Shown here one piece after another: positions 4,618-21,367 of a stretch of DNA of 58,245 bases. A model generated the notes under the pieces. That model was not told the origin of the DNA. It saw only the letters and a list, made by a program, of their open reading frames with translations, and did not search any database. Made by a program: the position numbers and the translations under genes. This stretch comes from Duncaniella muris (GTDB lineage: Bacteria; Bacteroidota; Bacteroidia; Bacteroidales; Muribaculaceae). The number at the start of each line of letters is the position of its first letter. Within the stretch, counting starts at the first letter, position 1. Location: contig NZ_PUEC01000023.1 in the NCBI RefSeq assembly GCF_003024805.1, forward strand, positions 1 through 58,245, read 5' to 3'.

Positions 4618-4645
4618 CAATATCTCTCAAATCATATTAAAAAAT

Positions 4646-4681
4646 GGAGCCACAAGTTTTTTGCCTGTGGCTCCTTTTTTG
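4646..4681 (+). terminator. intrinsic terminator between convergent genes
   Basis: The arms ggagccaca (4646-4654) and tgtggctcc (4666-4674) are followed by a T-run (4675-4681). An A-run before the hairpin could let it serve the opposing relaxase transcript too. Confidence 0.85.
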
Positions 4682-4683
4682 AA

Positions 4684-6309: not shown

Positions 6310-6707
6310 AGGCGGACGAGTTTAAGTTGCGGAGCAATCGGAGTGTACGGCTTTCTGTTAAGCCGTTCCGGGGTTTCCAAAGGGGTTGACCTCTTTGGCA
6401 TATTGGGGACATTTTCAGCGTATCGGAACGATATGCGGCTCGGAAAATTCCCTAATATGCTAAGGAATTTCCGGATGGCGTAATTTCCGTGCCGCCACTG
6501 CACGGATGGTACTGCACTGCCATAGCAGTGATGCACCGCTATAACCACTGCACTGAATGCAATGGTTTCTTCAATGAAAAAAGAATGTTTCACGGGATTT
6601 CAGTTTTGGATTTACCCCCTGGCACTTTCGGCATTTTGGCATAAAGGGAAGCGTAAGCATCTCCGTCAGAAATGCCAAAGTGCCAATAATGCCAAGGGGT
6701 AGATGGG
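6310..6707. other. repeat-rich spacer, candidate oriT
   Basis: This gene-free stretch holds several repeat groups. An imperfect inverted repeat (6615-6642 against 6672-6699) is built from ggca/tgcc units, with three units per arm. A cluster of actgca units (6495-6570) includes the small palindrome cactgccatagcagtg. taatttccgtg occurs at 6481 and again at 6721. Its position directly upstream of a MobV relaxase gene is where oriT lies in many mobilizable elements. The nick site cannot be located by eye, and the same repeats could instead bind a replication or regulatory protein. Confidence 0.45.
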
Positions 6708-8252: not shown

Positions 8253-8635
8253 CGGCTACCTCCTTTCTTCTTTGGTCTGTCTTCCGCATTCAGCACGCCT
8301 ACGGCTTTGCCGTTGACAAGTCTGCTTTCAGCCCAGCTCAGCAACTCTGATTCCTTGAAGTGAAGCTTATTGTTGAATTTCCAGTGCGGTATGGTCCCGT
8401 TGCTCGTTTCCTTGTAGAGCTGCCCGATTTTCATGGGATAGCCGTTTTCGTTCAGGAACTCGAGTGCTTCGGTCACTTTCAGCCCATCGGGATCCCGCTT
8501 TTTTGATTTTGCGGAAGCGTTGGCGAGTGTCGCCAGCACTCCCGATTCAGCAAGGCAGTCCTTGACCGCGTCTTTCAGGAGGCGCTTCAGAACCTCGATG
8601 AAAGGAAGATTCAGGTAATCTGTAATTGTGTTCAT
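8249..8635 (-). CDS. helix-turn-helix / excisionase-like protein
   Basis: A small basic protein (128 residues from the ATG at 8635; an upstream ATG at 8683 would add 16 low-complexity residues). The C-terminal half (VTEALEFLNENGYPM, then KIGQLYKETSNGTIPHWKF) has the pattern of the MerR/excisionase-like winged HTH proteins seen next to DUF3987 genes. It probably binds element DNA, as a regulator or recombination directionality factor. It is the first gene of a leftward pair with the DUF3987 gene. A TAATTTTG -7 box on the minus strand (8810-8817) could drive both. Confidence 0.7.
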   Translation of the reverse strand: MNTITDYLNLPFIEVLKRLLKDAVKDCLAESGVLATLANASAKSKKRDPDGLKVTEALEFLNENGYPMKIGQLYKETSNGTIPHWKFNNKLHFKESELLSWAESRLVNGKAVGVLNAEDRPKKKGGSR

Positions 8636-8809
8636 TTGGATAGGGGGATTAGTGGTTTGGGGATTTGTTTTTTTCTCACGCATCAGTTTTCGGATGATAA
8701 GTGATATGCCGTATGTTCAACATACTCTTGGTGGGTGTCGTCAGATCATAGTGATAGCGTCTGTCAGCCCGATGACTACACCCGGAGGATTAAAGGCTGG
8801 CGGACACTG

Positions 8810-8817
8810 CAAAATTA
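8810..8817 (-). promoter_or_regulatory. -7 element for the HTH-DUF3987 pair
   Basis: On the minus strand this reads TAATTTTG. No matching -33 box is obvious at 18-21 bases. It would give a leader of roughly 120-170 bases depending on the start chosen. Confidence 0.35.
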
Positions 8818-9034
8818 ATACAGGACTTGCGTCCTTCTGAGGTGCGTAAAGGCGAATATCATTGAAATGTCTACGGGCTATATGTTTTGTTGCCCTTCCG
8901 GACGAGCAATAAAAAAGCGGGGCCGCGCCGATATGTCTTTCCTGACATGCCTTTGGCGAGGTCTCGTTATTATGTTTTCAGTCCTTACTTGATATATTTC
9001 CGATTAATGAATAATCGCCCTTGTCGCAAGGGGT

Positions 9035-9113
9035 GTGGCAGGGGTGCGTCAACCGTCACCGCCCTGCCGGGTCGGTGCTTCGCGTTGCCGCGTGGGGTCA
9101 GGGCTACTGCCAC
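9035..9113. other. GC-rich segment with nested stems
   Basis: Within the 635-base gene-free stretch 8684-9318, an outer stem pairs gtggcag (9035-9041) with ctgccac (9107-9113). An inner stem pairs ccctg (9062-9066) with caggg (9099-9103). It is much richer in GC than its surroundings. It could be a non-coding RNA, a protein-binding site or an origin feature. I do not recognise it. The flanks show nothing else beyond the promoter at 8810. Confidence 0.3.
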
Positions 9114-9318
9114 CTAACCACTTTGATATTTTTCCAACAAAAGAAAAAACGGAATTGTTCAGCGGTGTCCGGTTTATTCCGGCGATTGCCGATGTGTGTC
9201 TTTCTTTCCTGACGGATATGATTCCGTCACGGCCGCGAAGTTACGAAACGGGGTCGATATATGCAAGTTTTTTGAACCCAGGAGGGCCAATCTGCGTAAT
9301 GAAGCTGTTTTTGACGGG

Positions 9319-10122
9319 CTATTTCAGCAGTTTTCTGTCGTTGTCGCCGCTTTCAAGTACGCTCATCTGATGGATGGCGATTTGATTGAGCTTGATGAGC
9401 CGCTCATGCTGTGGCATTCCCTGTTCAATGAATACAGCGTTGAGATTCTCCATGTTGGAAAGGCATATAAGTTCGTTTATGGAGGCGTAATCCCGGATAT
9501 TGCCTTTGAGGTCGGGATTGGCGTCACGCCACTGTTTTGCAGTCATGCCGAACATGGCTACATTCAGCACATCGGCTTCATTGGCATAAATGATGCTCGC
9601 CTGAGCCTTTGTTATCTCGGCAGGTATGAGATTATGCTTGATGGCATCGGTGTGAATTCTATAGTTTATCTTGGACAGCTCACGCTTAGCAGACCAGCCG
9701 ATAAGACGCTGTTCTTCCTCTTTGAGACGCTGAAATTCCTTGACGATATAAACCTTGAATTCAGGACTTATCCACATTGCGAACTCAAACGCAATGTCCT
9801 TATGGGCATATGTGCCACCATAACGCCCCGCTTTTGCTTGCAATGAGACCGCGTTGGTCCTCGCAACGAATTCCTTTACGCTTATTTTGAAGTTATTAAG
9901 ACCTGCATGATTTCTAATTGTGGCGAATTCGCCATAATTAAAATTTGGATTATATACCTTTTCCCAAATGCCGATAAACTCCAAGGTATTTCGGTTGCGC
10001 AGCCAGTCGGTGATGAAGAAGTCCCCATCTTTGGCACGCATCATGTCAGTAAGACAGATGTAATCTTCTCCGTTGACTTTCACAACGTTGACCTCAGTAT
10101 CTTTTACTGTGATTTTTGTCAT
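9319..10122 (-). CDS. KilA-N domain protein
   Basis: A 267-residue protein whose first 110 residues match the KilA-N fold (GEDYICLTDMMRAKDGD, then NWLRNRNTLEF-like spacing as DWLRNRNTLEFIGIWE, and the AGRYGGTYAH core). KilA-N is a DNA-binding domain of phages and mobile elements. The C-terminal part (about 130-267) is a conserved helical extension often found with it. It may be an element regulator. A minus-strand promoter (GTTG, 20 bases, TATCTTTG at 10257-10250) drives it, giving a leader of about 120 bases. A plus-strand promoter inside that leader points against it. Confidence 0.8.
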   Translation of the reverse strand: MTKITVKDTEVNVVKVNGEDYICLTDMMRAKDGDFFITDWLRNRNTLEFIGIWEKVYNPNFNYGEFATIRNHAGLNNFKISVKEFVARTNAVSLQAKAGRYGGTYAHKDIAFEFAMWISPEFKVYIVKEFQRLKEEEQRLIGWSAKRELSKINYRIHTDAIKHNLIPAEITKAQASIIYANEADVLNVAMFGMTAKQWRDANPDLKGNIRDYASINELICLSNMENLNAVFIEQGMPQHERLIKLNQIAIHQMSVLESGDNDRKLLK

Positions 10123-10156
10123 CTCTCGTAAATTTTAATGTATCGAAATCGGTACT

Positions 10157-10188
10157 TTTGGCAGATTGGACTGAAAGTATTACCTTTG
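10157..10188 (+). promoter_or_regulatory. consensus promoter facing against the KilA-N leader
   Basis: TTTG (10157-10160), a 20-base spacer and TACCTTTG (10181-10188) form a near-perfect Bacteroidetes promoter on the plus strand. No gene lies downstream on that strand. The predicted start near 10195 leads directly into a hairpin terminator. Confidence 0.65.
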
Positions 10189-10194
10189 CAGTGT

Positions 10195-10244
10195 TGATTC
10201 CCGGTAGCCCCTGACTCGTCAAGCTATCGGGTTTAGTTTTTTGT
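10195..10244 (+). ncRNA. candidate short antisense RNA over the KilA-N leader
   Basis: From the promoter at 10157-10188 the predicted transcript is about 50 bases. It consists of a stem pairing cccggtagc with gctatcggg around a 14-base loop (10199-10232), then gtttagtttttt. The opposing KilA-N promoter (10250-10281) starts its RNA near 10243, so the two transcripts would be fully complementary over this RNA. The ends are predicted, not mapped. Confidence 0.45.
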
Positions 10245-10249
10245 ATCTG

Positions 10250-10281
10250 CAAAGATAATCATTTTCATCGGATTGGGCAAC
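10250..10281 (-). promoter_or_regulatory. promoter of the KilA-N gene
   Basis: On the minus strand it reads GTTG (10281-10278), a 20-base spacer and TATCTTTG (10257-10250). It faces the plus-strand promoter at 10157-10188, so the two polymerases would run into each other. Confidence 0.55.
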
Positions 10282-10285
10282 AGTG

Positions 10286-10319
10286 AGAAAAAGGACACCG
10301 GGTATCCCTCCCGATGTCC
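10286..10319 (-). terminator. terminator of the second integrase
   Basis: On the minus strand, ggacatcggg pairs with cccggtgtcc around a short loop and TTTTT follows. It lies 130 bases after the integrase stop. The rest of 10320-10449 shows nothing supportable. Confidence 0.7.
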
Positions 10320-10449
10320 AACCACTAATCCGCGTCAGGATGAAACAATAACATGATGACTGCGAATCTTGATGCAAAGGTAGTGTTTTTCAGCCGTATG
10401 CACAACTCTATAACAACATAAAGAGCCAAAGCGCCGGAAATGCCATGGG

Positions 10450-11709
10450 CTATTTTGCCGTTTCCGTGTCAAACGCGACTTTGCCGAGTTTGTTTATGGC
10501 TTTCTGTTTGCGCTGGTCGATCACATGAAGATATTTCTCAGTCATCTTGATGCTCGCGTGTCCGAGAAGAGAGGATACTGTCTTTATGTCGGTTCCGGCA
10601 TTCAGAAGATTTACGGCGAAACTGTGCCTGGCGCAGTGCCATGTGATGCTCTTCTTGATTCCTGCGTTCTTCACCCATCGGGCGAGATGCTTTCTCGCCG
10701 TACCCTTGTGAGGCAGGTCGAATATTCTCTCCCTCGGGTTATCATCATCTTTAGGCTGTCCAATCAGCTTTATAAGCTCATCGTTGAGCGGCATCACTAC
10801 GGCGGCATGTGCGCTGCGTCCCGCGCTTTTCTTCTGGTTAAACCTCATCACCATGCTCTCGTAATCGACATTGGCGAATGTCAGTTCCGACACATCGCAG
10901 TACCGCAGTCCGGTGAAACAGCAGAAGATAAATGCCCGCTGCACCTCTCGGTGTTCGCCGTCATATCGGAACGCCGCGAGGGTGTTTATCTCTTTCGGTG
11001 TGAGAATCTCCTTCAGCATAATGTTTGTGTCGTACACTATGCGGATTCCACGGCAGGGATTCTTTTTTATCAGTTCTTCATCGACAGCATCTGCAAGCAC
11101 CTTCTTGAACCAGTGGTAATTCTTTCGCGGTCCCTCTCCGGTGCATTTCTTCCGGAGATAGTTGGTGAATCCGAGAACCATGTCCGGAGTGACGGCATCC
11201 ATCGGCAGGACATCCTTGTATTTTGAGAACTGTGGAGTTAGCTCAAGATACTCGATGAAGCGTGTCAGAGAATATTTGTAAGACCTGCGGACTGGCAGTG
11301 TGAACGCTTCGTTGTCCCGGTGTTGCCGGAAGTACCTGAGGAAGTTACTCTCCTTCTCCCTTTTCAGGCGGTAACCCTTTCGGTCTTCAAGCATCTCCTG
11401 CTCTTTCTCAAACCGTATCTTCTCGGCGAGGGCGATGGTGTTCTTGTTCTGCTGCCGTTCCTGAGCCGAGCGGGGATGAACCCATACATACAGATTAAGA
11501 GCCTCCTTCTTGCGCAGGTGCTGCACCTTGTATTTAAGTTTTCCTTTCATCGCCCCGGATTCATACACGACATGGTTGCCGTCATCGTCATAGACGGGCG
11601 ATTCGCTACGGCCGAGATAGTATTCCAGCCATAGACTCGCACGTCCGTCTGACATCTCCCTCTGGATGAGCTTGGGATTTTGTTTCTGTTTATTTGGCAG
11701 TCTGCCCAT
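10450..11709 (-). CDS. tyrosine recombinase / integrase of the mobilizable element
   Basis: A 419-residue phage-integrase-family recombinase. The catalytic signature is complete: arginine in FTGLRYCDVSEL, HCARHSFAVNLL, LLGHASIKMTEKYL with the tyrosine nucleophile. The N-terminal half shows the same arm-binding pattern as the first integrase, so the two are homologues from related elements. The gene lies at the right end of the relaxase/DUF3987/HTH/KilA-N block, and the 22-base repeat lies 96 bases upstream, the expected arrangement for an integrase next to its attachment site. A minus-strand TACCTTTG (11743-11736) is the likely -7 box. The ATG at 11709 gives MGRLPNKQKQNPKL, parallel to the start of the first integrase. 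Confidence 0.95.
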   Translation of the reverse strand: MGRLPNKQKQNPKLIQREMSDGRASLWLEYYLGRSESPVYDDDGNHVVYESGAMKGKLKYKVQHLRKKEALNLYVWVHPRSAQERQQNKNTIALAEKIRFEKEQEMLEDRKGYRLKREKESNFLRYFRQHRDNEAFTLPVRRSYKYSLTRFIEYLELTPQFSKYKDVLPMDAVTPDMVLGFTNYLRKKCTGEGPRKNYHWFKKVLADAVDEELIKKNPCRGIRIVYDTNIMLKEILTPKEINTLAAFRYDGEHREVQRAFIFCCFTGLRYCDVSELTFANVDYESMVMRFNQKKSAGRSAHAAVVMPLNDELIKLIGQPKDDDNPRERIFDLPHKGTARKHLARWVKNAGIKKSITWHCARHSFAVNLLNAGTDIKTVSSLLGHASIKMTEKYLHVIDQRKQKAINKLGKVAFDTETAK

Positions 11710-11804
11710 AATGAATTAATTTTGTGTTTGTGGAGCAAAGGTAATAACGGATTGTGAGACACGAAAATCGCCCACAACATCTATTAACAATCGAAATGGG
11801 CAAA

Positions 11805-11826
11805 TGGTGTACTTATGGTGTACTAA
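11805..11826 (+). repeat. 22-base direct repeat, right copy (candidate att or arm site)
   Basis: Two tggtgtact units spaced 11 bases apart and ending in aa, with 20 of 22 bases shared with 2129-2150. See the left copy for the interpretation as an element boundary. Confidence 0.5.
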
Positions 11827-12240
11827 ATGCGAAAAAAGATACAATCAGGAGAAACTGAATAGAAAGCCTGATTTATCTAATATGCTGATATTCACCGATA
11901 ATAGTTATAACGGGTTATATCGGTTTTCCCTATGAAAAAACATACCTTGCCGAATCCCGACGGATTCCGTTGTACGTTAAGTAATTATATAAGGTTGTGG
12001 AATACGGGACCCCGGATTTTATGCCGGATTCATGTCTGAAATCGGGAAAATTGGCATTTCAGTCTGTTTGAATGTAAAATGGATATAAAAATTCGGGATG
12101 GCAATGAGGGAAGAATAAGATTTTGCAAAGGATAGTTAAGGTCGTTTCGGACTAAATATGTAATGAAGTTATGGTTTTAAAAGGAATAAACCGCAATAAT
12201 ACAGATAGTTAACGATAGCGGTCTTGATTGCAAGACGGCT

Positions 12241-12565
12241 GAAATGATGTAATGACGTAATGACGTATTGACGTATTTATTTATGAATGTCATGACGTAA
12301 TGATGTATTTACGTGTTGATGTGCTTATGTATGATTGTATTGGAATATTTTAGTCTGAATGTATGGATAGATGACTGAATGACTGGGGTTTCAAATGATT
12401 GACTGATTGAATGACTGAATGATTGAGTGATTGTTCATTCAGATGATTGGCTGATTGAATGACTGAGTGATTGAGAGACTGATTGACTGACTGGTCATTC
12501 AGTTGATTGAATGATTGAATGACTGACAGACTGAATGATTGATTGGCTGAGTGATTGGTCATAAA
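12241..12565. repeat. degenerate short-period repeat tract (TGACGTA units, then TGAN tetranucleotides)
   Basis: The left part (12241-12330) repeats tgacgta-like units. From about 12360 to 12565 nearly every fourth base pair restarts the unit TGAN (tgac, tgat, tgaa, tgag), with small phase shifts. It lies in a 1.2 kb gene-free stretch (11827-13026) between the mobilizable element and the defence operon. A minus-strand frame through it encodes only NQSLNHSVIQS-type repeats and has no support as a gene. Nothing else is seen in 11827-12240 or 12566-12860. Confidence 0.75.
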
Positions 12566-12864
12566 ACAAGCCTTATGACTGCCCAATTGAAGTAAAGACC
12601 GTCCAATCTGTCCGTTGATTTTCAGCCATTAGATTTTTCATCATGCAATTTTGAAATCAGAACTTCCAAGCTTGTTTTAGAGAAGTTGACTTCCGATATT
12701 GAGATATCCGATTTTAGATAATACCAATGGCATCTAATCTTTAGGTCTGTTGATGATTTTTATTCGGATTGAGTTTCGCTGATTTTACGAGTCTTAAAGG
12801 ATTTTGAGGTTGTGAGCCTAAAATTTAATTTGCTCTTCGCCATAGAATCAAACGAAATTTTTTG

Positions 12865-13026
12865 TAACTTTGCAATCTACTATGCGTAGTAGACTGACAA
12901 AGACCACGACATGATAAAATAGATTATCTCAACATATAAAGGAGCTTCCTTGTAGTCGCATAAAGGCTTGGTCGCCTGTCAGAACTATAAGGAGGCTCTT
13001 TTGTTTTCGCCAAAGGACATCTTACC
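12865..13026 (+). promoter_or_regulatory. promoter and attenuator-like leader of the defence operon
   Basis: TAACTTTG (12865-12872) is a good -7 box. Directly after it the palindrome tctacta-tgcg-tagtaga (12876-12893) sits at the expected transcription start and could be an operator. Further on, a segment starting aaaggagcttcctt (about 12940) pairs with aaggaggctctttt (about 12990), and the second arm runs into a T-rich stretch, which resembles a terminator or attenuator upstream of the GTG start at 13027. The -33 box is not clear. Confidence 0.45.
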
Positions 13027-15597
13027 GTGAGCAAAAAGACGAAAACATACGACATACCCGATGAGGTAGCCGAAGCAATTGTCGCAGAGCGAAAGTCGCT
13101 GTACGGCATAAAATCTTATGTCAGCCTGTTTAGTAGTGCTGGCATTGGTTGCTATGGCTTCAAAGAAGCAGGGTATAGCTGTATTGCCACGGTCGAATTA
13201 TTAGAACGTCGCCTGAAGATTCAGAAGTACAACAATAAATGTATGTTGTCATCTGGATATATTTGTGGTGATATGACTCTTCCTGGGACAAAAGATAAAG
13301 TTTTCCATGAATTGAAAGTTTGGAAAGAGTGCTTTGGTGTTGATGATTTAGATGTTCTGATTGCAACTCCACCATGTCAAGGAATGTCCGTTGCTAATCA
13401 TAAGAAAGGTGATGAGCTTAAACGAAATTCTTTGGTGGTAGAATCCATAAAGATAACACAAGAAGTAAAGCCAAAATTCTTTATTTTTGAAAATGTACGC
13501 GCATTCTTAAATTCAATATGTACTGATATTGATGGAAAGGATAAAACAATTCAAGAGGCAATCTCTATGAATTTAGGCGGTCATTACAATATCCTTTATA
13601 GGATTGTGAATTTCAAAGATTATGGTTGTCCGTCAAGTAGAACGAGAACACTTGTAATTGGCGTTAGAAAGGATTTGCAAGACATCGCCCCATTTGATAT
13701 TTTCCCTACGCAGACATCAGAAAAAACCTTGCGAGAAACGATTGGTCATCTCCCTGAACTTACTGAGATGGGCGAGATTTCTACAGATGACATATATCAT
13801 AATTTTAGAAAATATGCACCCCACATGGAAAGGTGGATTTCTGAAATTAAGGAAGGTCAATCTGCATTTGACAACGAGGATATTACAAGAATCCCTCACA
13901 CCGTCAAGAATGGCGTAGTTGTTTATAATGCTAAGAAAAATGGTGATAAATATACACGCCAATATTGGGATAAAGTTGCGCCCTGCATCCATACTCGCAA
14001 TGACATTATGGCGAGTCAAAATACTGTACATCCAACTGACAACCGCGTATTTAGTATTCGAGAGGTAATGCTTATGATGTCAGTCCCTTATTCCTTTCAG
14101 TGGACTGATATACCATTCGACCAATTAAATGCTCTTCCATTAAAAGAAAAGCAAGCTTTTCTTAAAAAGGAGGAAATGAATATAAGACAAAATCTTGGAG
14201 AAGCTGTTCCGACGATTATATTCAGACAAATTGCAAACAAAATTCGTAAATATCTTGAACGTCCAACATTTACAAATGCTGATGCGCTTGCATTGGTAAA
14301 AGATAACCAATTATGGACTCAGGAAAGAATAATTAGATATATTCGTCAAAGCCAGTCATCTTTCTCTCGCCTTTCTCGAATAGTTGAAATGGCAAATTCA
14401 GAGAGAGATAATACTGCCGCATACTATACTCGCCAAGATATTTGTTTCAGCATTGTCAACAACTTACCTGAAGCAAAGAATTTTTCCACACTATCTATTT
14501 TAGAACCGTCTATCGGAGTGGGGAATTTTTTGCCGGCTTTAATTGATAGATATGCTAATGTTTCTAATGTAACGATTGATGTTGTTGATATAAATCCCAC
14601 ATCAATTCAATTGCTAAAAGAAATGCTCCTGCATATCAATATTCCAGCCAATGTCAAGATTAATTTTATTGAGGGCGATTTCTTGTTACTTGAGTTTGAT
14701 AAAAAATACGATATTGTAATCGGTAATCCTCCATACATGAAATTGACTAAAGAGAAATCTTTAGCCACTAAGTATAAGGCTGGTGCAATCAATAAAGACA
14801 CGAATAATATCTTTGCTTTCTTTGTTGAAAAAGCCATAAAGTTGGGTTCGTATGTTTCTCTAATAGTTCCTAAAAGCATAATAAATGCGCCCGAATTCAA
14901 TAAAACACGTGAGATAATGAATTACCATTCAATATCCCATATCATTGACTTTGGGGAAAAGGCATTTAAAGGCGTTAAAATTGAAACTATCTCTTTCACA
15001 ATAAATACTACCCGGAAATCCGGTGAAACTTTGGTATCTTCATATATCAATAATTCGGTTCGTCTGCTTCCGCAAAAATATATTACTGATTCTTTCTTCC
15101 CTTATTGGCTTCTATATCGAAATGAGGATTTCGACAGGGTGGCAAATTCTATGAGTTTTGGTATCTTCAAATCATATCGAGATAGAGTAATCACCAAAGC
15201 CGTTACTAAGTCGAGAGGGAAATTTCGGGTGCTTAAATCAAGGAACATAGGTAATAATGAGGTTATTGACATCCCGGATTATGATTGTTATGTGGATGAT
15301 ATATCATCTTTTGATGTATCAAAATTTCTGAACCATACGGAATGTGTTCTACTTCCTAACTTAACATACAATCCAAGAGCTTGTTTTTTACCAAAGAACT
15401 GTATTGCAGATGGCTCTGTCGCTATTTTATCCTTGTCTGACCCCGATGTAACAGTCACGGCAAAAGATCTTGAATTTTATGCCACTGATGAATTTATCCA
15501 ATTTTATGCCATAGCGCGAAACTTGGGTACACGTTCTTTGAACATTGACAATAATTCCGTATTTTTCTTTGGGAAACAAATAATAACAGAATCATGA
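13027..15597 (+). CDS. bifunctional DNA methyltransferase: C5-cytosine domain fused to N6-adenine domain
   Basis: The 856-residue protein contains two complete-looking methyltransferases. The N-terminal domain (about 30-420) is Dcm-like: SAM motif FSSAGIGCYG (35-44), the catalytic PPCQ with Cys117, ENV (155-157) and an arginine-rich motif VIII region (SSRTRTLVIG). The C-terminal domain (about 430-856) is an N6-adenine enzyme like those of type IIG or N12-class systems: SAM motif LEPSIGVGN (492-500) and catalytic NPPY (567-570). It would modify both cytosine and adenine in the host, protecting against the nuclease encoded next. The GTG start at 13027 is chosen because no in-frame ATG precedes the fold. 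Its stop overlaps the HNH gene start by four bases. It is AT-rich relative to the core genome, a sign of transfer. Confidence 0.85.
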   Translation: MSKKTKTYDIPDEVAEAIVAERKSLYGIKSYVSLFSSAGIGCYGFKEAGYSCIATVELLERRLKIQKYNNKCMLSSGYICGDMTLPGTKDKVFHELKVWKECFGVDDLDVLIATPPCQGMSVANHKKGDELKRNSLVVESIKITQEVKPKFFIFENVRAFLNSICTDIDGKDKTIQEAISMNLGGHYNILYRIVNFKDYGCPSSRTRTLVIGVRKDLQDIAPFDIFPTQTSEKTLRETIGHLPELTEMGEISTDDIYHNFRKYAPHMERWISEIKEGQSAFDNEDITRIPHTVKNGVVVYNAKKNGDKYTRQYWDKVAPCIHTRNDIMASQNTVHPTDNRVFSIREVMLMMSVPYSFQWTDIPFDQLNALPLKEKQAFLKKEEMNIRQNLGEAVPTIIFRQIANKIRKYLERPTFTNADALALVKDNQLWTQERIIRYIRQSQSSFSRLSRIVEMANSERDNTAAYYTRQDICFSIVNNLPEAKNFSTLSILEPSIGVGNFLPALIDRYANVSNVTIDVVDINPTSIQLLKEMLLHINIPANVKINFIEGDFLLLEFDKKYDIVIGNPPYMKLTKEKSLATKYKAGAINKDTNNIFAFFVEKAIKLGSYVSLIVPKSIINAPEFNKTREIMNYHSISHIIDFGEKAFKGVKIETISFTINTTRKSGETLVSSYINNSVRLLPQKYITDSFFPYWLLYRNEDFDRVANSMSFGIFKSYRDRVITKAVTKSRGKFRVLKSRNIGNNEVIDIPDYDCYVDDISSFDVSKFLNHTECVLLPNLTYNPRACFLPKNCIADGSVAILSLSDPDVTVTAKDLEFYATDEFIQFYAIARNLGTRSLNIDNNSVFFFGKQIITES

Positions 15598-16769
15598 GAG
15601 AAGTTATAAACGAATATTTGAACAAGTTTGATTTTGACATACGAAAGTCGCATGATTCGAGGTATGTTGACCAAAAATGTACACCAGACATCGTTTGTTT
15701 CTTGGCAGATTGCATACTAAACATCGCAGCCTCCCACCCAACATTTACGGCTAATGATATATGGCAAAGTCAATATTTCAAGCATAATTGCCGAGTGGTA
15801 TTCAACAAGCCGTATGCTGATGACAAAAGAGCAAAGAATGAATACAATAAATGGTTTTCGCAGCCATTAAAGTTATTCCATACTGCTGGAATTCTTGATG
15901 CAGATTTTTCGACACGCCCTGCCACATATTCAATAAAGAATGAGGAGTTATTGGATTATATTTCCCGGCGTGAAAGAAACTCGTACAACTTTCTATATTG
16001 TTACTTTTCAAAGGTTCTGAAGGATAGTGGCTTTTGGCGATATTTTGAAGAATATTTGCATAATGTAACTGATAATCGCATTGCTGCCAAAAATGAGTTA
16101 TATGATAGATATTATCGTTTGATAAGTGGGAATACTCCAACACAATCCAAATTGGACATATATCGAATGTTTCACAAGGTGTTGAATGTGTTGGCGACTG
16201 AACATAATGTTCCCGGTAGCAGTGGAAAGGAGGCACGAATGTTCTCTGATTTGATGTACAATCGTAAGAATTGGCGGGATTTGAACAAGGAGAAATCCAT
16301 TACACGGCAGGAAGCGGCTGAGGAGCATATTGATGAACAACAAGAAGCATATAATTCCTACTATGTTCAGAAAGCAACGAATCTGCTGAAGAAAATTCAA
16401 AAAGAAAGTGAGGTGCATGATTCATGGGCAAATGGGTCAGCAACCCATGCTCACCACATCTTCCCTAAAGCACAGTATCCTCAGATTGCTCACTATATTG
16501 AGAATCTTATTATGTTGACAGCAACCCAGCATAACACAAAAGCACATCCAAACAACAATACTCAAATGATTGATAAGGATTATCAATTAGTTTGTTTGTT
16601 GGCGAAAGCGGATACAATTGAGCAATCGTTAAGGCGAATGGGCGAAAGGTATTATCGCAAAGAGTCTTTCCTATTTGTGATAAAGACTGGCTTAGATTGT
16701 GAGTTGAGTATGCAACTCTCATTCCAAGACATTAAGAATTGTTTAATCCAAATATATAATAGAGCTTAA
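15594..16769 (+). CDS. HNH-type restriction endonuclease (putative)
   Basis: A 391-residue protein whose last third carries an HNH/beta-beta-alpha-metal motif: HAHHIFPK (residues 285-292) with the paired histidines 287-288, then N304 in YIENLIML and H313/H318 in TATQHNTKAH. The first 270 residues have no family I recognise and may supply target recognition. Overlap with the methyltransferase stop (ATGA) and position directly before a second methyltransferase make it the probable cleaving subunit of a restriction-modification system. Sequence specificity cannot be inferred. Expression without the methyltransferases would be expected to be toxic. Confidence 0.75.
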   Translation: MREVINEYLNKFDFDIRKSHDSRYVDQKCTPDIVCFLADCILNIAASHPTFTANDIWQSQYFKHNCRVVFNKPYADDKRAKNEYNKWFSQPLKLFHTAGILDADFSTRPATYSIKNEELLDYISRRERNSYNFLYCYFSKVLKDSGFWRYFEEYLHNVTDNRIAAKNELYDRYYRLISGNTPTQSKLDIYRMFHKVLNVLATEHNVPGSSGKEARMFSDLMYNRKNWRDLNKEKSITRQEAAEEHIDEQQEAYNSYYVQKATNLLKKIQKESEVHDSWANGSATHAHHIFPKAQYPQIAHYIENLIMLTATQHNTKAHPNNNTQMIDKDYQLVCLLAKADTIEQSLRRMGERYYRKESFLFVIKTGLDCELSMQLSFQDIKNCLIQIYNRA

Positions 16770-16770
16770 A

Positions 16771-17847
16771 ATGGCTAAACGAGGAATAAAAGTCATAGAC
16801 CTATTTTGCGGCATTGGAGGACTCTCTCAGGGCTTTGTCCAAGAGGATTTTAATGTCGTTGCAGGCTTTGACGTTGATGAAACCTGCCGTTTTGCATATC
16901 AAGCCAATAATAACTCAAGATTCTATAATACTGATATAACCGCATTAGAGGGCAAAAAATTAAAAAAATTATATGGGAAATCATTGAAAATTTTAGTAGG
17001 ATGCGCTCCGTGCCAACCATTTTCTTCCTATAGTTTCAAGATTAAGGAAAAAGATTCCAAAAAAGTGAATTTGCTGTATTCTTTTCTTAAGCTTGTTCAA
17101 GAAACAGAACCAACTATTATTTCAATGGAGAATGTTCCCCAATTGACCAGATTTGACAATGGTCAAATTTTTAATGATTTCTGTATTGGTCTTGAAGCAT
17201 TAGGTTATAAATATTCCTATCAGATAGTTTATTGTCCTGATTATGGCATTCCACAAAGGCGTCGTCGCCTTGTATTATTGGCGTCAAAACTTGGGGGAAT
17301 TAAGCTTATGTCACCTACCCATGAAAAGTCATCCTATGTAACTGTTAGAGATGTCATTTCAGATCTTGCTCCAATAAACGCGGGGGAAACAGATCCTAAT
17401 GATTCCCTACATAAAGCGCGTGTCCTTTCTGAAATTAATTTAAGACGAATACAGGTATCTACGCAAGGAGGAAGTTGGAGAGATTGGCCAGAGGAATTGA
17501 TTCTGACTTGTTTTAAGAAAGAATCAGGAAGAACGTATAGTAGTGTTTATGGCAGGATGAGATGGGATGAACCAGCTCCAACAATGACAACACAATGTAC
17601 TGGATTGGGTAATGGTCGCTTTGGTCATCCAGAACAAGATAGAGCTATATCTCTTAGAGAAGCTGCTCGATTTCAAACATTTCCAGATACATACAAATTC
17701 TATGAAGATGACGCGAACTTCAATCCCTCAGTTATTTGTCGTCAAATAGGAAATGCAGTTCCTCCTCTCTTAGGGCGTGTTATAGCAAAAAGCATTAAGA
17801 AACATCTACAAATTCATGGTATATGGCGAAGAAAAAAAGACAACTGA
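16771..17847 (+). CDS. DNA (cytosine-5-)-methyltransferase, second copy
   Basis: A standard-length (358 residues) single-domain C5 methyltransferase. Motif I is DLFCGIGGLSQGF (10-22), the catalytic motif is PCQPFS with Cys81, motif VI is ENV (120-122), motif VIII has the run QRRRRLVLL, and RQIGNAVPP is the C-terminal motif X. It starts one base after the HNH gene stop. It differs clearly from the C5 domain of the fused methyltransferase, so it may modify the other strand of an asymmetric site or a second site. It ends in a 25-base overlap with the DUF262 gene, which suggests a co-transferred operon rather than two separate systems. Confidence 0.93.
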   Translation: MAKRGIKVIDLFCGIGGLSQGFVQEDFNVVAGFDVDETCRFAYQANNNSRFYNTDITALEGKKLKKLYGKSLKILVGCAPCQPFSSYSFKIKEKDSKKVNLLYSFLKLVQETEPTIISMENVPQLTRFDNGQIFNDFCIGLEALGYKYSYQIVYCPDYGIPQRRRRLVLLASKLGGIKLMSPTHEKSSYVTVRDVISDLAPINAGETDPNDSLHKARVLSEINLRRIQVSTQGGSWRDWPEELILTCFKKESGRTYSSVYGRMRWDEPAPTMTTQCTGLGNGRFGHPEQDRAISLREAARFQTFPDTYKFYEDDANFNPSVICRQIGNAVPPLLGRVIAKSIKKHLQIHGIWRRKKDN

Positions 17848-18902
17848 CACCTGAACTCGCGGCTCAATTGGAAGATCAATTGGCTTCCGCAAGTATGCCA
17901 TACAATTACGATACAAAAGAATATCCAATTGAGGTAATCTTAGCAAAATATGCTAAGGAGGAAATATTTGTACCTCCCTATCAACGAGATTTTATATGGA
18001 AAGCGAGTCAGAAAGCTTGTTTTATAGAATCACTATTTTTAGGAGTCCCAATAATGCCGATATTTGTTTCAGTCTCCGGTGATAATGCAGAATTGGAGGT
18101 TATAGATGGATCTCAGCGTATTCGTACAATTGTAGAATATTGCAATAATAATCTGAAATTGCAAGGATTGGAAGCATTGACGATGTTGAATGGGACATAT
18201 TTTTCTGACCTACCAATATCACGACAGAATAAATTTAAATTACGTGATATCCGTGTCCATGTTGTAACAGACAAAGCCGATGCCGCTACTCGTGCCGATA
18301 TATTCAAAAGAGTCAATACAAGTAGCTCACGTTTAACTCCAAGTGAAACAAGAAAAGGAGCCTACCAAAGTGAGTTCTATCAATTTATCATTGATTCTGC
18401 AAAAGATCCTTTGTTGAGAGAACTTTGTCCTATCTCAGAAAGTAAGATAAAACGTGGTGAATATGATGAGTTGGTTCTTCGATTCTTTGCATATTCAGAA
18501 GAATATCTGAAGTTTAAACATGATGTAGCACCATTCTTGGATGCTTTTGTCAAGAATCATAAGGACAACTTTGATAAAGATGCACTTAGCTCGAAATTTC
18601 AACGAATGCTTAGTTTTGTAAAAAACACATTTCCGAAGCCATATTTTGCTCGGTCTATAAATGATGGAAGTACGCCTCGCGTTAGATTCGAGGCATTATC
18701 AGTAGGCGTTCATCTTGCATTGGAGGAAGATAGTTCAATTCATCCTACGAATTTTGAATGGCTAAATTCAATAGAATTTAAACGACATACAACTTCGGAT
18801 GCCAGTAATAATCCGGGCCGTCTGCGTGACCGGGTCGAATTTGTAAGAGATGTCCTTTTAGGTAGAATTACATCCTTTACTTATGCTGACAACGAGGAGT
18901 GA
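17823..18902 (+). CDS. DUF262 domain protein
   Basis: A 359-residue protein with the hallmark motifs of the DUF262 (GmrS/ParB-like) domain: PPYQRDFIW (51-59), the segment FIESLFLGVPIMPIF, and DGSQR (95-99) in place of the usual DGQQR. Members of this family in defence systems bind and hydrolyse nucleotides and can nick DNA; type IV GmrSD is the best studied. No C-terminal DUF1524 (GmrD-like HNH) domain follows, so this is a stand-alone DUF262 protein. It starts inside the preceding methyltransferase gene and overlaps the HEPN gene by 20 bases, indicating tight coupling to both. Confidence 0.85.
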   Translation: MAKKKRQLTPELAAQLEDQLASASMPYNYDTKEYPIEVILAKYAKEEIFVPPYQRDFIWKASQKACFIESLFLGVPIMPIFVSVSGDNAELEVIDGSQRIRTIVEYCNNNLKLQGLEALTMLNGTYFSDLPISRQNKFKLRDIRVHVVTDKADAATRADIFKRVNTSSSRLTPSETRKGAYQSEFYQFIIDSAKDPLLRELCPISESKIKRGEYDELVLRFFAYSEEYLKFKHDVAPFLDAFVKNHKDNFDKDALSSKFQRMLSFVKNTFPKPYFARSINDGSTPRVRFEALSVGVHLALEEDSSIHPTNFEWLNSIEFKRHTTSDASNNPGRLRDRVEFVRDVLLGRITSFTYADNEE

Positions 18903-19557
18903 ATTTGCACGTCGCTTAAGCGAAATTGATTCCTACTTTTCTGTTCTATCACCATTGGACAGCTGTTCTTGTGTCTTTGAAAGTCGAGATTTATCTGGAA
19001 CTGTTAGTAGATTGACAATTGATGAAGAATTGAGCAAGATATTGAAAGCTAATGGATTTATTCTTCTATATAATCTTTTGGAGGCAACTGTGCGCAATTC
19101 AATTAAAGCAATTGGCAATGTTATTGAATCAGAGGGCATAAAATATCAAGATTTTTCGGAAAATCTTAAGAAACTTTGGATAAACCATTCCTTTAAAAGT
19201 GTTGACGCACAACGCATCAAGCATGAAACTATTGGTCCAATATTAGATCAGATTGTCAATAATGAATTTCTAAGATTGGAAGAAGATGCGATTTCGTTTA
19301 GTGGAAATATAGATGCTCAAAAAATCAGAGAAATTGCAAAACGAATAGGATATAAAGCTCCTAAAGATGGTCGAGAACTTGTGACAATAAAAGAAAAGAG
19401 GAATCAACTTGCTCATGGAGAAAAGACATTTTGTGAAATTGGCCGAAATTTTACTGTAGGTGAATTAGTGAGATTGAAAGATGCCATGACTTCATACATA
19501 TCTGAAGTTCTTGATAATGTCCAAGATTATATTGATACAAAAGCATATAGGATCTAA
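18883..19557 (+). CDS. HEPN-family protein (MAE_28990-like), putative RNase
   Basis: A 224-residue helical protein. The N-terminus (SEFARRLSEIDSYF) resembles the MAE_28990/MAE_18760 HEPN families, which commonly sit beside DUF262 genes. The HEPN active-site motif R-x4-H is present as RNQLAH (173-178). HEPN enzymes in immune systems usually cleave RNA and are kept silent until infection, which is inference here. The TAA stop (19555-19557) is also the target triplet of the insertion sequence that follows, and the triplet is duplicated at the far side of the element, so the coding sequence is intact. The original terminator is now 880 bases away. Confidence 0.75.
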   Translation: MLTTRSEFARRLSEIDSYFSVLSPLDSCSCVFESRDLSGTVSRLTIDEELSKILKANGFILLYNLLEATVRNSIKAIGNVIESEGIKYQDFSENLKKLWINHSFKSVDAQRIKHETIGPILDQIVNNEFLRLEEDAISFSGNIDAQKIREIAKRIGYKAPKDGRELVTIKEKRNQLAHGEKTFCEIGRNFTVGELVRLKDAMTSYISEVLDNVQDYIDTKAYRI

Positions 19558-20425
19558 GAGATTGTCTAAATTTTATTGATTAAAAATTTTATGGCAGCGA
19601 AATCAATCATTTCTTCCGCTGATTCATTTGATATTTCATAATTTCGAGCGAGTCTGCGGCAAGAATCAAGCCATGCGAAAGTCCTCTCAACCACCCATCT
19701 GAGCGGCTTTGGCAGGAATCCCTTAACTCCATTGGGGGTATTGGATACCTCAAGCTCGATGCCGAAGTCTTTTTCAATGTCTTTGTCCACGTCTCCCCGA
19801 TACCCTCGGTCGGACAATACCTTGCGCAGGTCTTCCCATACATCATCCGCCAGTCCGCATAGCTCATGAGCCATTTTTGAATCGTGAATACCGGCGTTAC
19901 AGACTTTCCTCGCAAGGATGAAGCCATTGCGGTCGGTGATGATATTCCTTTTGACACCCTTGACTTTTTTGTTGTCGTCATATCCGTTATCTCCTTGTCT
20001 GCTACCCCATTTGACACTTTGGGCATCCATCGCGCCAACACTCGGACTTGATGCCTGGCCGCGTTTGCGACGTATCTTTCTGACGAGTTTCTCAAGGAAA
20101 TGCTCGACACGACCCTCTTGTCTCCATTTATGGTAGTAATAATAGACACTTTTCCACGCGGGATAGTCGTGAGGCAACCTTCGCCATTGGCAACCGCTGA
20201 CCAATAGGTAGAGGATAGCTTCAAAAACTGATTGTAGTGAATATTTTCTCTTGCGTCTATCATTTTCAAGGAATTCTTTGTTTATATAAGACCACTGACC
20301 CTCGGTCAGATGTGTTTGATAGAGATTGATTTCGTGCATAATATTAGCCTTTTCTCCTTCAACACTCTGATTGAGGGTTTGTTATGCCTAATAACATTAT
20401 TTCGCACTAATTTTTAGACAATCTC
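19558..20425 (-). mobile_element. IS5-family insertion sequence
   Basis: It is 868 bases long, with 13-base terminal inverted repeats (gagattgtctaaa at the left, its complement at the right) and one transposase gene. A TAA triplet flanks both ends (19555-19557 and 20426-20428), a 3-base duplication as expected for the IS1031/ISL2-type branch of IS5. The left TAA is the stop codon of the HEPN gene. It appears intact and could still be mobile. Confidence 0.85.
19566..20339 (-). CDS. IS5-family transposase (DDE)
   Basis: A 257-residue single-frame transposase. The N-terminal half carries the DUF4096-like segment (SLQSVFEAILYLLVSGCQWR, then RLPHDYPAWKSVYYYYHKW) typical of IS5 transposases. The DDE catalytic residues are probably D in GAMDAQSVKWG, D in LSDRGYRGD and E in WVVERTFAWLD. 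It fills nearly the whole element. The ATG at 20339 lies 86 bases inside the right inverted repeat. Nothing suggests frameshift or truncation. Confidence 0.92.
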   Translation of the reverse strand: MHEINLYQTHLTEGQWSYINKEFLENDRRKRKYSLQSVFEAILYLLVSGCQWRRLPHDYPAWKSVYYYYHKWRQEGRVEHFLEKLVRKIRRKRGQASSPSVGAMDAQSVKWGSRQGDNGYDDNKKVKGVKRNIITDRNGFILARKVCNAGIHDSKMAHELCGLADDVWEDLRKVLSDRGYRGDVDKDIEKDFGIELEVSNTPNGVKGFLPKPLRWVVERTFAWLDSCRRLARNYEISNESAEEMIDFAAIKFLINKI

Positions 20426-20435
20426 TAACTAAAAT

Positions 20436-20470
20436 CCACCAAAAACGGATATTTTTTCTTGGTGGTTTTA
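20436..20470 (+). terminator. displaced terminator of the defence operon
   Basis: ccaccaa (20436-20442) pairs with ttggtgg (20459-20465), preceded by A-rich and followed by T-rich sequence. Removing the insertion sequence places it 8 bases after the HEPN stop codon, so it was the operon terminator before the insertion. Confidence 0.75.
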
Positions 20471-20734
20471 TTACAGATTGATGCCATATACGTTTGGATT
20501 GCCCATTATTTTTTGAACATCTCTTATCAAGTAAAAATAGGCAAATCAACTCAGCTAAAGATTCTTAACATATTATAAATATCGCAAATTTCTTTGTCTG
20601 TGGTTGCTGTCATCTTCTTATAAAGTACAAATTTAGTACAATAACTAACCTGCTATGCGCTGATATATAGGAACTTATATGTCCTAATGGAAATTCTCGC
20701 AAAATTTCATAATAAAGTCAAGGATTGAGCAACG

Positions 20735-20914
20735 GTAGATGCCCGTGGATGTGTAATATCCTGCATCCGGCATCGTATTCCGAGAGGAATATGGCCGGGG
20801 CATTTATTGCATATACAAGCGTGGGCTTCTGCGTTGCCGTCCGACTTTATTAGGGCAATGCGAGAAGCCTCTGAACGTAGGACGGTAACAGATACAGACT
20901 CCTACGCTTTTTTT
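20735..20914 (+). ncRNA. unassigned structured RNA with terminator and possible pseudoknot
   Basis: Four successive stems are visible. Hairpin A pairs gatgcc/ggcatc with inner ggatg/catcc (20738-20774). Hairpin B pairs tattcc/ggaata with a GAGA loop (20776-20791). Hairpin C is a 15-pair stem with one bulge (20824-20838 with 20854-20869). Hairpin D pairs cgtagga/tcctacg (20876-20906) and is followed by a run of T, as in an intrinsic terminator. The loop of C (gtcc, 20839-20842) can pair with ggac (20880-20883) in D, a possible pseudoknot. No known class is recognised (not tmRNA, RNase P, SRP, 6S or a riboswitch I can identify). No consensus promoter is seen just upstream. The flanking 20471-20734 shows only small hairpins. 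Confidence 0.55.
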
Positions 20915-20981
20915 GTATGAACCAATAATAATATGGCTATCAAGGGGAGCATAGTAGCGACAATTGCAATATAAATGCAGT

Positions 20982-21083
20982 ATGAATAAAGTAGCTCGGA
21001 TATTTTATCTAATACTTATTGGATCGTTTCAGATTGTCTTATACCCACTTTTCGCTCTTGTTACTGATATCACTTGTCATTGA
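20982..21083 (+). CDS. possible 33-residue membrane peptide
   Basis: A short ATG-started frame, MNKVARIFYLILIGSFQIV then LYPLFALVTDITCH, would form one basic-started transmembrane helix. It lies 70 bases after the structured RNA. Small hydrophobic peptides beside structured RNAs occur in type I toxin-antitoxin pairs, but nothing here proves translation and no family is recognised. The stretch 21084-21367 holds AT-rich upstream DNA of the next gene and no other supportable feature. Confidence 0.22.
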   Translation: MNKVARIFYLILIGSFQIVLYPLFALVTDITCH

Positions 21084-21367
21084 TAACAATGGCGTTAAGG
21101 TCGATTTTACTAGGAAAATTCAGGGTTACGAATATCTTTTTACTCTATGCTAACGGGATATTATAAGTTATGTTTCAATGATGCATAGGGATGCCATCAT
21201 AGATATAAAAATCGACATTGAGCCTTACATAATCCAATGAATCTTTCCAACTCAACGAAAATATCTTTTGTGTATGCACAAATAACATTCTCATTTATTT
21301 GCGCTACAAATATATTAATATTACTTACTTCAATAATACCTTAGCAAATTATTTAAATATATTGAAT

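What the first reader, a model, noticed from the sequence alone, without database searches (positions are those of the whole stretch)
13027..19557. Five-gene overlapping defence operon: fused m5C/m6A methyltransferase, HNH nuclease, second m5C methyltransferase, DUF262 protein and HEPN protein
All five genes overlap or abut and share one promoter and one terminator, so they were inherited as a unit. The first three look like a restriction-modification core with three methyltransferase activities. The last two, DUF262 and HEPN, are known to sit together but are not usual parts of an R-M system. The combination suggests a two-layer system: DNA cleavage guarded by methylation, backed by an RNA-cleaving suicide arm. 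I do not know of a described system with this exact set.
Basis: partly seen in the sequence, partly recalled or inferred. Interest (0 to 1): 0.82.

Follow-up and report, generated by a model that had tools for sequence, protein, structure and literature searches.

The report
Two defence systems in one operon
This gut-bacterium operon joins a known kind of DNA-cutting defence system to a separate, widespread but untested three-gene system that probably marks the cell's own DNA and uses an RNA-cutting enzyme as its weapon.

Summary
All five genes are present at the stated coordinates, with intact active-site motifs. Genes 1-2 look like a type IIS restriction-modification system of the HpyAV/Hin4II family, described in 2010 (fused m5C/m6A methyltransferase plus HNH endonuclease). 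Genes 3-5 form a separate triad: m5C methyltransferase, DUF262 protein and MAE_28990-type HEPN protein. Of 43 non-redundant HEPN loci, 41 have DUF262 adjacent (two are truncated) and 37 of those an m5C methyltransferase; among the 36 loci found through HEPN alone, 34 and 30. Only 3 of the 43 show genes 1-2 in the fetched DNA. The methyltransferase is nearly always one subfamily with a well-conserved target-recognition region. In relatives, the same subfamily sits beside a GHKL ATPase instead.

A 2013 HEPN survey already noted a 'ParB nuclease and DNA methylase' beside this HEPN family; I found no experiment on it. The composite recurs, partly seen at contig ends, in two divergent lineages; trees reject a single clade for its genes 1-2. 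Most likely: a methylation-guarded, RNA-cleaving (abortive) system co-transcribed with an ordinary R-M system. The trigger and the RNase activity are inferred. The HEPN model found no structural match in the PDB; the DUF262 model never returned.

The parts
12865..12872 (+). Bacteroidota-type promoter box TAACTTTG (TAnnTTTG; consensus recalled), candidate -7 element of the operon
   Evidence: direct reading; followed at 12877-12892 by palindrome CTACTATGCGTAGTAG
12936..13004 (+). strong 5' leader hairpin between promoter and gene 1
   Evidence: fold -35.5 kcal/mol, z -4.45, 0 of 200 shuffles as good; a similar hairpin upstream of gene 1 in L060 but not seen in L062
13027..15597 (+). gene 1: fused m5C (N-terminal) / N6-adenine (C-terminal) DNA methyltransferase, 856 aa, HpyAV/Hin4II-like
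   Evidence: PF00145 5e-40, Eco57I 6e-19; PADLOC MTase_II PDLC03277 1e-226, nearly full length; PPCQ and NPPY invariant in 7 aligned rows
15594..16769 (+). gene 2: HNH-type restriction endonuclease, 391 aa
   Evidence: PADLOC REase_II PDLC03488 2e-85; invariant HH.F...EN..L...H in 8 rows; beside gene 1 wherever the contig reaches
16771..17847 (+). gene 3: m5C DNA methyltransferase of the triad, 358 aa
   Evidence: PF00145 2e-69; m5C MTase adjacent to DUF262-HEPN in 37 of 41 loci; conserved target-recognition region
17823..18902 (+). gene 4: DUF262 (GmrSD_N) protein, 359 aa, predicted NTP-dependent sensor; no DUF1524 match
   Evidence: PF03235 9e-25; PADLOC NsnA 2e-52, PD-T4-2_A 4e-31; DGxQR in 37 of 37 triads
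18883..19557 (+). gene 5: HEPN (MAE_28990) predicted ribonuclease, 224 aa
   Evidence: PF18737 9e-27; loose RxxxxH in 36 of 37 triads, tighter R(N/D/S)x(L/I/V)xH in 35 of 37; model mostly helical, pLDDT 87, no PDB fold match
19558..20425 (.). IS5-family element inserted at the stop codon of gene 5 (TAA 19555-19557 repeated at 20426-20428); transposase 19566-20339 on the minus strand
   Evidence: inverted repeats; NCBIfam transpos_IS5_3 2e-52; empty site in G081; ends re-read. The exact duplication length is ambiguous because the ends share letters
20436..20472 (+). displaced terminator-like hairpin that directly follows gene 5 in the G081 copy
   Evidence: fold -11.1 kcal/mol over 20428-20480 and direct reading; not flagged by the terminator scan

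Best explanation
The operon is two complete defence systems fused end to end. System A (genes 1-2) is a type IIS restriction-modification system of the HpyAV/Hin4II kind: the fused enzyme puts m5C on one strand and m6A on the other of an asymmetric site (CCTTC in HpyAV; the site here is inferred only), and the HNH endonuclease cuts DNA that lacks the marks. System B (genes 3-5) is a methylation-guarded RNase system. Gene 3 keeps host DNA m5C-methylated at one fixed motif. Genes 4 and 5 work as a tight unit in which the DUF262 protein, an NTP-dependent sensor, inspects DNA and holds the HEPN RNase off; DNA lacking the right mark (incoming phage DNA, or host DNA after loss of the system) releases the RNase, which cuts RNA and stops the cell and the phage. 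SHOWN by sequence comparison: the 2+3 split, domain families, intact motifs, the constant DUF262-HEPN pairing, the near-constant MTase partner. INFERRED: RNase activity, NTP-dependent sensing, the trigger (unmethylated rather than methylated DNA), the RNA target, and that A and B act independently though co-transcribed.
For: Separability: of 10 strong family matches to gene 2, three are in composites and seven (L059-L064, L066) hold none of genes 3-5 in the fetched DNA; six of these have 6.0-10.5 kb downstream. Module A relatives appear in 3 of 43 triad loci. Pairing: 41 of 43 HEPN loci have DUF262 adjacent (2 cut by contig ends), 37 of 41 an m5C MTase, 34 of the g3 subfamily; for the 36 loci found through HEPN alone the numbers are 34, 30 and 27. 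Control: 0 of 9 fetched DUF262 loci without HEPN have a g3-type MTase. Distances of HEPN and DUF262 correlate at r=0.89 (0 of 2000 permutations as high), DUF262-MTase 0.46 (0.67 for g3-type only), HEPN-MTase 0.54. MTase place varies (23 upstream same strand, 10 downstream convergent, 4 downstream same strand) while DUF262-HEPN order is fixed, so the MTase most likely speaks to the pair through DNA marks. Target-recognition region (residues 173-261, my delimitation) 50.2% mean identity v 50.6% for the N-terminal and 62.6% for the C-terminal catalytic part, 31 rows. System A: PADLOC models of 823, 387 and 445 aa hit by gene 1 have the lengths of M.HpyAV, M1.Hin4II and M2.Hin4II; Bacteroides stercoris has an 856/390 aa pair in Table 2 of PMC2816704. 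The triad without module A is cargo of a P2-like prophage between portal and replication genes and of Moraxella phage Mcat24.
Against: No wet data, and no direct alignment to HpyAV itself was made. Foldseek found no PDB match for the HEPN model (0 of 306 at E up to 0.001, TM at most 0.25 in the rows shown), so the RNase assignment rests on Pfam and motif. The same g3-type MTase subfamily also sits beside GHKL ATPases, so it is not exclusive to HEPN. MTase missing where it should be visible: E. coli plasmids (L096/L137) and L108 (close to a contig end); L048 and L091 cannot be judged. Three triads use another m5C MTase (L051, L087, L088). The recognition region is less conserved than the C-terminal catalytic part. 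Known DUF262 proteins such as GmrSD and BrxU attack modified DNA, which argues against the trigger proposed here. The composite recurs more than chance would give (0.0004, or 0.006 without G081), so A and B may be coupled.
Confidence: 0.5

Rival explanations
1. Type IV-like reading: DUF262 senses foreign modified cytosine (as GmrSD/BrxU do) and triggers HEPN; the m5C MTase only makes host DNA look different or blocks off-target sensing.
For: Characterised DUF262 proteins respond to modified DNA (PMC10952713, passages). The DGxQR nucleotide motif is intact in 37 of 37 triads. E. coli plasmid copies do without an adjacent MTase.
Against: 37 of 41 loci keep an m5C MTase; if the sensor read m5C as foreign, the host mark would be suicidal.
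Confidence: 0.18
2. Functional coupling: the R-M enzymes hold the HEPN RNase in check and anti-restriction releases it.
For: The composite recurs (G000/G081, and partly seen L043 and L065) with tight gene overlap. Holding the composite rows of gene 2 or gene 1 together is rejected (p-AU 0.0017 and 0.0007), which suggests repeated joining. Triads also abut other R-M genes: an endonuclease of the HpaII profile PDLC03563 plus m5C MTase and Vsr in L067, an m5C MTase and REase_II match in L044, a second m5C MTase and a Vsr gene in L056 (no endonuclease identified). PrrC precedent (PMC3710099 section 10).
Against: 40 of 43 triad loci show no module A gene and 38 of 43 no second m5C MTase of another gene in the fetched DNA (P2_4B2's split gene not counted; other R-M types were not scanned throughout). 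The R-M partner differs between loci, so no contact specific to HpyAV-type proteins can be needed. Clustering of defence genes is common without coupling.
Confidence: 0.15
3. The triad is an ordinary R-M system in which DUF262 (ParB-like) is the DNase and HEPN an accessory.
For: The 2013 survey calls the partner a 'ParB nuclease'. Gene 4 weakly matches a PADLOC type II REase profile, PDLC03418 (3e-13).
Against: No DUF1524 or other nuclease domain was found in gene 4; in GmrSD, BrxU and SspE the DUF1524 part is the nuclease. DUF262 and HEPN are together in 41 of 41 untruncated loci.
Confidence: 0.12
4. Addiction module: the triad persists by killing cells that lose the methylase; phage defence is incidental.
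For: Plasmid and prophage residence.
Against: Not exclusive of the best explanation. Also found between genes that by eye look like chromosomal housekeeping genes.
Confidence: 0.05

Closest known systems
HpyAV / Hin4II type IIS R-M family (CCTTC)
   Same: Fused m5C+m6A MTase followed by a same-strand HNH endonuclease gene; lengths match the putative Bacteroides stercoris member (856/390 aa v 856/391 aa).
   Different: Here followed without a break by genes 3-5. Recognition site not tested; no direct alignment to HpyAV; the endonuclease profile hit (430 aa) has the length of neither HpyAV (419) nor Hin4II (418).
MAE_28990 HEPN operons of Anantharaman et al. 2013 (PMC3710099)
   Same: Table entry: HEPN 'in operon with a ParB nuclease and DNA methylase genes'; genes 3-5 fit this.
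   Different: In the abstract, passages and section 10 that I saw: no composite with an HpyAV-type system, no account of gene order, no test of function. Its figures and supplement were not seen.
PD-T4-2 (E. coli, tested against T4)
   Same: DUF262 and HEPN are both listed for PD-T4-2 (PMC10952713 passages; T4 test in PMC9519451 passages); gene 4 hits PD-T4-2_A at 4e-31.
   Different: Gene 5 hits no PD-T4-2 profile and its best Pfam is PF18737, not PF18735; no MTase is mentioned for PD-T4-2 in the passages seen.
Menshen (NsnA, DUF262)
   Same: Best PADLOC hit of gene 4 is NsnA, 2e-52.
   Different: Menshen's DUF262 gene has an OLD-type partner, not HEPN; the name NsnA = Menshen is recalled. 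Nine DUF262 proteins without HEPN hit NsnA far better (4e-68 to 5e-135).
GmrSD / BrxU / SspE
   Same: DUF262 domain with DGxQR-like motif.
   Different: DUF1524 HNH DNase replaced by a separate HEPN protein.
GHKL (paraMORC) R-M associations
   Same: The same g3-type MTase subfamily sits beside GHKL-type ATPases in G017, G113, G002, G194 and G041; Pfam-checked in three (G002, G194, G041), by eye in two.
   Different: The partner is a GHKL ATPase instead of DUF262+HEPN; in L131, whose MTase is distant (36%), it carries a C-terminal Ymh domain.

Membership tests
HpyAV/Hin4II type IIS R-M (genes 1-2) | MTase = fusion of C5-cytosine and N6-adenine domains (or split pair) | tested here: met
HpyAV/Hin4II type IIS R-M (genes 1-2) | HNH endonuclease gene directly downstream, same strand | tested here: met
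   HNH Pfam match itself below cut-off (E 0.027), PADLOC REase_II 2e-85
HpyAV/Hin4II type IIS R-M (genes 1-2) | sequence homology to HpyAV or Hin4II proteins themselves | tested here: inconclusive
   only through unnamed PADLOC models whose lengths equal the MTases' (v); no direct alignment
HpyAV/Hin4II type IIS R-M (genes 1-2) | recognises CCTTC | not testable with these tools
   needs methylome or digestion
MAE_28990 HEPN | PF18737 domain with RxxxxH motif | tested here: met
MAE_28990 HEPN | fold like a solved HEPN protein | tested here: inconclusive
   model pLDDT 87.3, pTM 0.82, but no PDB match at E up to 0.001
2013 'ParB nuclease + DNA methylase + MAE_28990 HEPN' operon | all three genes together | tested here: met
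PD-T4-2 | DUF262 A component | tested here: met
   PD-T4-2_A 4e-31, but weaker than NsnA
PD-T4-2 | its own HEPN B component | tested here: inconclusive
   only a weak Cas6 match for gene 5 up to E 0.1; whether a B model is in the library was not checked; PF18735 second-best, 1e-13
Menshen | DUF262 protein with OLD-type partner genes next to it | tested here: not met
   the window has HEPN and an MTase instead
GmrSD/BrxU type IV | DUF262 plus DUF1524 nuclease | tested here: not met
   no DUF1524 match in any of the five proteins
PrrC-type anticodon nuclease with type I R-M | HEPN fused to ABC NTPase beside hsd genes | tested here: not met

The most novel reading that the evidence does not exclude
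Genes 3-5 represent a widespread, untested class of 'restriction' in which the weapon is an RNase, not a DNase: one fixed m5C mark is the self signal, a DUF262 NTPase reads it, and a HEPN toxin answers. The effector is a cassette that can be exchanged for a GHKL ATPase around the same methylase, and the cassette is bolted repeatedly onto different type II R-M systems as a second, abortive layer sensing a second mark.
Probability: 0.33. Interest if true: 0.8.

Novelty: new variant of a known kind. Interest (0 to 1): 0.55.

Why it matters
If right, it shows how epigenetic self/non-self marking can be wired to RNA cleavage and cell shutdown rather than to DNA cutting, and gives a compact model (three genes, phage-borne in E. 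coli) in which to ask what DUF262 proteins sense. The swap between DUF262-HEPN and GHKL partners around one methylase subfamily makes the question directly testable: same mark, two weapons.

Tried and rejected
(2) Five-gene set unique to one genome: rejected (G081; L043 and L065 in part). (3) Single ancient five-gene unit: not favoured; holding the composite rows together is rejected for gene 2 (p-AU 0.0017, 3 v 9 rows, L065 only 91 aa) and gene 1 (p-AU 0.0007, 2 v 6 rows). One gain with repeated loss is not excluded. (4) Idea that PADLOC REase_II profiles hit by gene 4 and by the GHKL proteins are subunits of BceSIV: dropped, because BceSIV is a PLD nuclease plus ATPase (PMC4267653, passages). 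(5) Idea that the MTase is dispensable in E. coli because host Dcm supplies the mark: the P2_4B2 record has a split MTase but an intact copy exists in E. coli 181.1, so only the plasmid copies lack it; left open. (6) MnlI as closest relative of module A (recalled): replaced by HpyAV once PMC2816704 was seen. (7) Rfam at E up to 1: one sub-threshold match (GcvB, 0.8) in 11700-21300. (8) PDB sequence search: no match for gene 2 or its profile; none meaningful for gene 5. (9) Structure predictions: gene 5 returned only and its Foldseek search gave no credible match; gene 4 had not finished. (10) Literature: ten searches of the held open-access library. One search found only PMC3710099 for MAE_28990/MAE_18760. 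None of the listings or passages I saw describes the triad experimentally, but supplements could not be read: the DefensePredictor paper (PMC13092281, passages; 4 HEPN systems) and the P2/P4 hotspot paper (PMC9122126, passages) may list it in tables. Most subscription papers and the bioRxiv collection are not held.
Full report
OBSERVATION. Pfam and PADLOC confirm the domains. The HNH assignment of gene 2 rests on a PADLOC type II REase match (2e-85, residues 3-380) and on invariant HH...EN...H residues in 8 aligned relatives; the Pfam HNH match alone is sub-threshold. Catalytic motifs of the other proteins are intact.

FLANKS. In the window a 9.9-kb insertion with its own integrase, a Mob_Pre relaxase, a DUF3987 and a KilA-N protein sits between, bounded by a 12-bp repeat AAAACATACCTT. 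An IS5-family element has inserted at the stop codon of gene 5, with TAA on both sides, so the protein is unchanged but the terminator-like hairpin of the G081 copy is displaced beyond it. The 'one terminator' claim is therefore not supported here. The sigma-70 scan is no better than shuffled sequence (37 found, 37.9 expected); a TAnnTTTG box and a strong leader hairpin precede gene 1.

TWO MODULES. In family samples of 198 and 196 genomes gene 2 has strong matches in 10 genomes (two of them fragments at contig ends, G152 and G048) plus one weak one (G033, which carries a 43% fused MTase with a different HNH protein). Gene 4 matches in 52 genomes, but closely (64% or more) in only 4 (G000, G081, G152, G175); the others are 39% identical or less. 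Three genomes have both, adjacent in each. The chance of 3 or more is 0.0004, or 0.006 if G000 and G081 count once (the two samples treated as one of 196). In phylum samples of 395 genomes, apparently the same set, gene 2 occurs in 4 and a good HEPN match in 4 (plus two weak partial ones); only G000 has both. The seven strong family matches outside composites (L059-L064, L066) show none of genes 3-5 in the fetched DNA.

MODULE A. The fused MTase and HNH endonuclease fit the HpyAV/Hin4II family (PMC2816704; passages, sections 5 and 10 seen). M.HpyAV is a C5/N6A fusion of 823 aa, Hin4II has separate 387 and 445 aa enzymes, and the endonuclease is HNH. The PADLOC models hit by gene 1 have just these lengths, though PADLOC does not print their names; the endonuclease model (430 aa) matches neither R protein in length, and I made no direct alignment to HpyAV. 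Table 2 of that paper already lists a putative Bacteroides stercoris pair of 856 and 390 aa. This module is known.

MODULE B. I assembled 43 non-redundant HEPN loci (three duplicates, L042, L058 and L085, dropped). Thirty-six came through HEPN similarity (of the 13 plasmid records, 8 were fetched, the other five being Escherichia/Salmonella rows with the same match values as H35); the window and six others (L065, L067, L100, L104, L111, L112) came through genes 2 or 4. Two of the 43 are cut at contig ends. The other 41 have DUF262 beside HEPN (gap at most 49 nt), and 37 have an m5C MTase: 23 upstream on the same strand, 10 downstream and convergent, 4 downstream on the same strand. In the 36 HEPN-found loci the counts are 34 with DUF262, 30 with MTase, 27 g3-type. 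Over all 43, 34 MTases are g3-type; L051, L087 and L088 have another m5C MTase. Of the four without one, L048 and L091 end at the contig edge, L108 is close to one, and L096 (an E. coli IncF plasmid) lacks it; a related copy, L137, lies between IS3 and IS26, and this pair matches in 9 of 5426 E. coli genomes, 8 covering at least 80%. Nine fetched DUF262 loci without HEPN have no g3-type MTase and are NsnA-type by PADLOC. Some rows are close kin (L087/L088), so 43 is not 43 independent events, and 17 of 43 have under 3 kb on one side.

WHAT THE PATTERN SAYS. HEPN and DUF262 distances correlate at 0.89, DUF262 and MTase at 0.46 (0.67 for g3-type only), HEPN and MTase at 0.54 (33 rows, 31 g3-type). 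The pair keeps its order while the MTase moves, flips and is occasionally replaced. That suits a DUF262-HEPN complex that communicates with the MTase through methylated DNA. The MTase recognition region (residues 173-261 as I cut it) is as conserved as the N-terminal catalytic part (50.2 v 50.6% mean identity), though less than the C-terminal part (62.6%), and holds a GG(S/T)W-x-x-W...CHKK...YGR-like signature. The family therefore probably keeps one target. Relatives outside triads share most of it, so this is a feature of the subfamily, not of triads alone.

EFFECTOR SWAP. Of 11 family genomes with gene 3-like MTases at E up to 1e-40, four are the triad genomes. In five others (G017, G113, G002, G194, G041) the next gene is a GHKL-type ATPase: Pfam-checked in G002, G041 and G194 (where the gene looks broken), by eye in G017 and G113. 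In G045 the gene is cut by the contig end; G122 has a distant MTase (36%) beside a GHKL-Ymh protein. In the MTase tree (41 rows) four GHKL-linked and two HEPN-linked rows (L044, L056) form one clade (100/100) nested among HEPN-linked rows; the order inside it is weak (81/38), and L129 is unplaced. The tree needs 3 label changes, at least 2 forced by well-supported branches. In L129 an endonuclease of profile PDLC03563 (Pfam RE_HpaII) is followed by a second m5C MTase and [g3-type + GHKL]; in L067 an endonuclease of the same profile is followed by [gene 3 + DUF262 + HEPN]. The label paraMORC follows the 2013 paper.

COMPOSITE. The complete five-gene order was seen only in the window and G081; L043 has gene 1 cut and L065 only the end of gene 2. 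Gene 3 of the window is closest to L067, which has other R-M genes in place of module A, while module A of the window is closest to stand-alone copies. Repeated joining is the simplest reading; one gain with several losses remains possible. L043 is a metagenome bin, and its host label may be wrong.

STRUCTURE. The gene 5 model is mostly helical (pLDDT 87.3, pTM 0.82), but Foldseek against the PDB returned no match at E up to 0.001 among 306 rows, with TM-scores of at most 0.25 in the 50 shown. This does not support the HEPN assignment, which rests on PF18737 (9e-27) and the RxxxxH motif. Gene 4's model had not returned.

MECHANISM. For A, classical restriction and self-methylation (established for the family). 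For B, I favour a mark-guarded RNase: MTase writes self, DUF262 reads, HEPN kills. Sensing, trigger, RNase activity and RNA target are inferred. The main tension is that known DUF262 proteins react to modified DNA (PMC10952713, passages). Phage and plasmid residence, including an E. coli prophage of P2 type where the triad sits between portal and replication genes (3 of 5426 genomes match at 99% or more, 7 have a place covering at least 80% of the query), shows that B travels without A.

NOVELTY. A is known. The B association was noted in one table line in 2013 (PMC3710099: abstract, passages and section 10 seen), which also proposed multi-pronged HEPN/R-M defence. I found no experimental account in ten searches of the held library, and four HEPN proteins of the family hit no PADLOC 2.0.0 HEPN model. 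New here, as far as I saw, are the 2+3 anatomy, the extent and gene-order freedom of the triad, the conserved recognition region, the GHKL swap and the joining to different R-M genes.

Noticed in passing
window 19555-20428: IS5-family element inserted at the TAA stop codon of the HEPN gene, TAA on both sides, so the protein is unchanged; empty site in G081.
   Followed up: yes
window about 2064-11948: 9.9-kb insertion absent from G081, with tyrosine integrase, Mob_Pre relaxase, DUF3987 and KilA-N genes, bounded by a 12-bp repeat AAAACATACCTT: probably an integrative mobilisable element next to the defence operon.
   Followed up: partly
window 12936-13004: Very strong 5' leader hairpin (z -4.45) upstream of gene 1, also present in L060; preceded by palindrome CTACTATGCGTAGTAG at 12877. 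Possible autoregulation of the R-M operon.
   Followed up: partly
window 12243-12557: Minisatellite-like arrays (8-, 48- and 60-bp periods) upstream of the operon promoter.
   Followed up: no
L051 10759-12533: Triad with a different m5C MTase is followed by an AAA15-type ATPase and a DUF4276 protein of the HEC-01 kind.
   Followed up: no
L125-L129, L131: g3-type MTase (a distant one in L131) next to GHKL-type ATPases, some with Vsr-like and further m5C MTase genes nearby; in L131 the GHKL protein carries a C-terminal Ymh domain.
   Followed up: partly
L076 8085-11804 (G033): Diverged fused MTase (43%) paired with a different HNH_2 endonuclease: apparent endonuclease replacement.
   Followed up: no
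L067, L056, L104, L103: Vsr mismatch endonuclease genes close to several triads or HEPN fragments, as expected where m5C deamination must be repaired (Pfam in L056 and L067, record annotation in L103 and L104).
   Followed up: no
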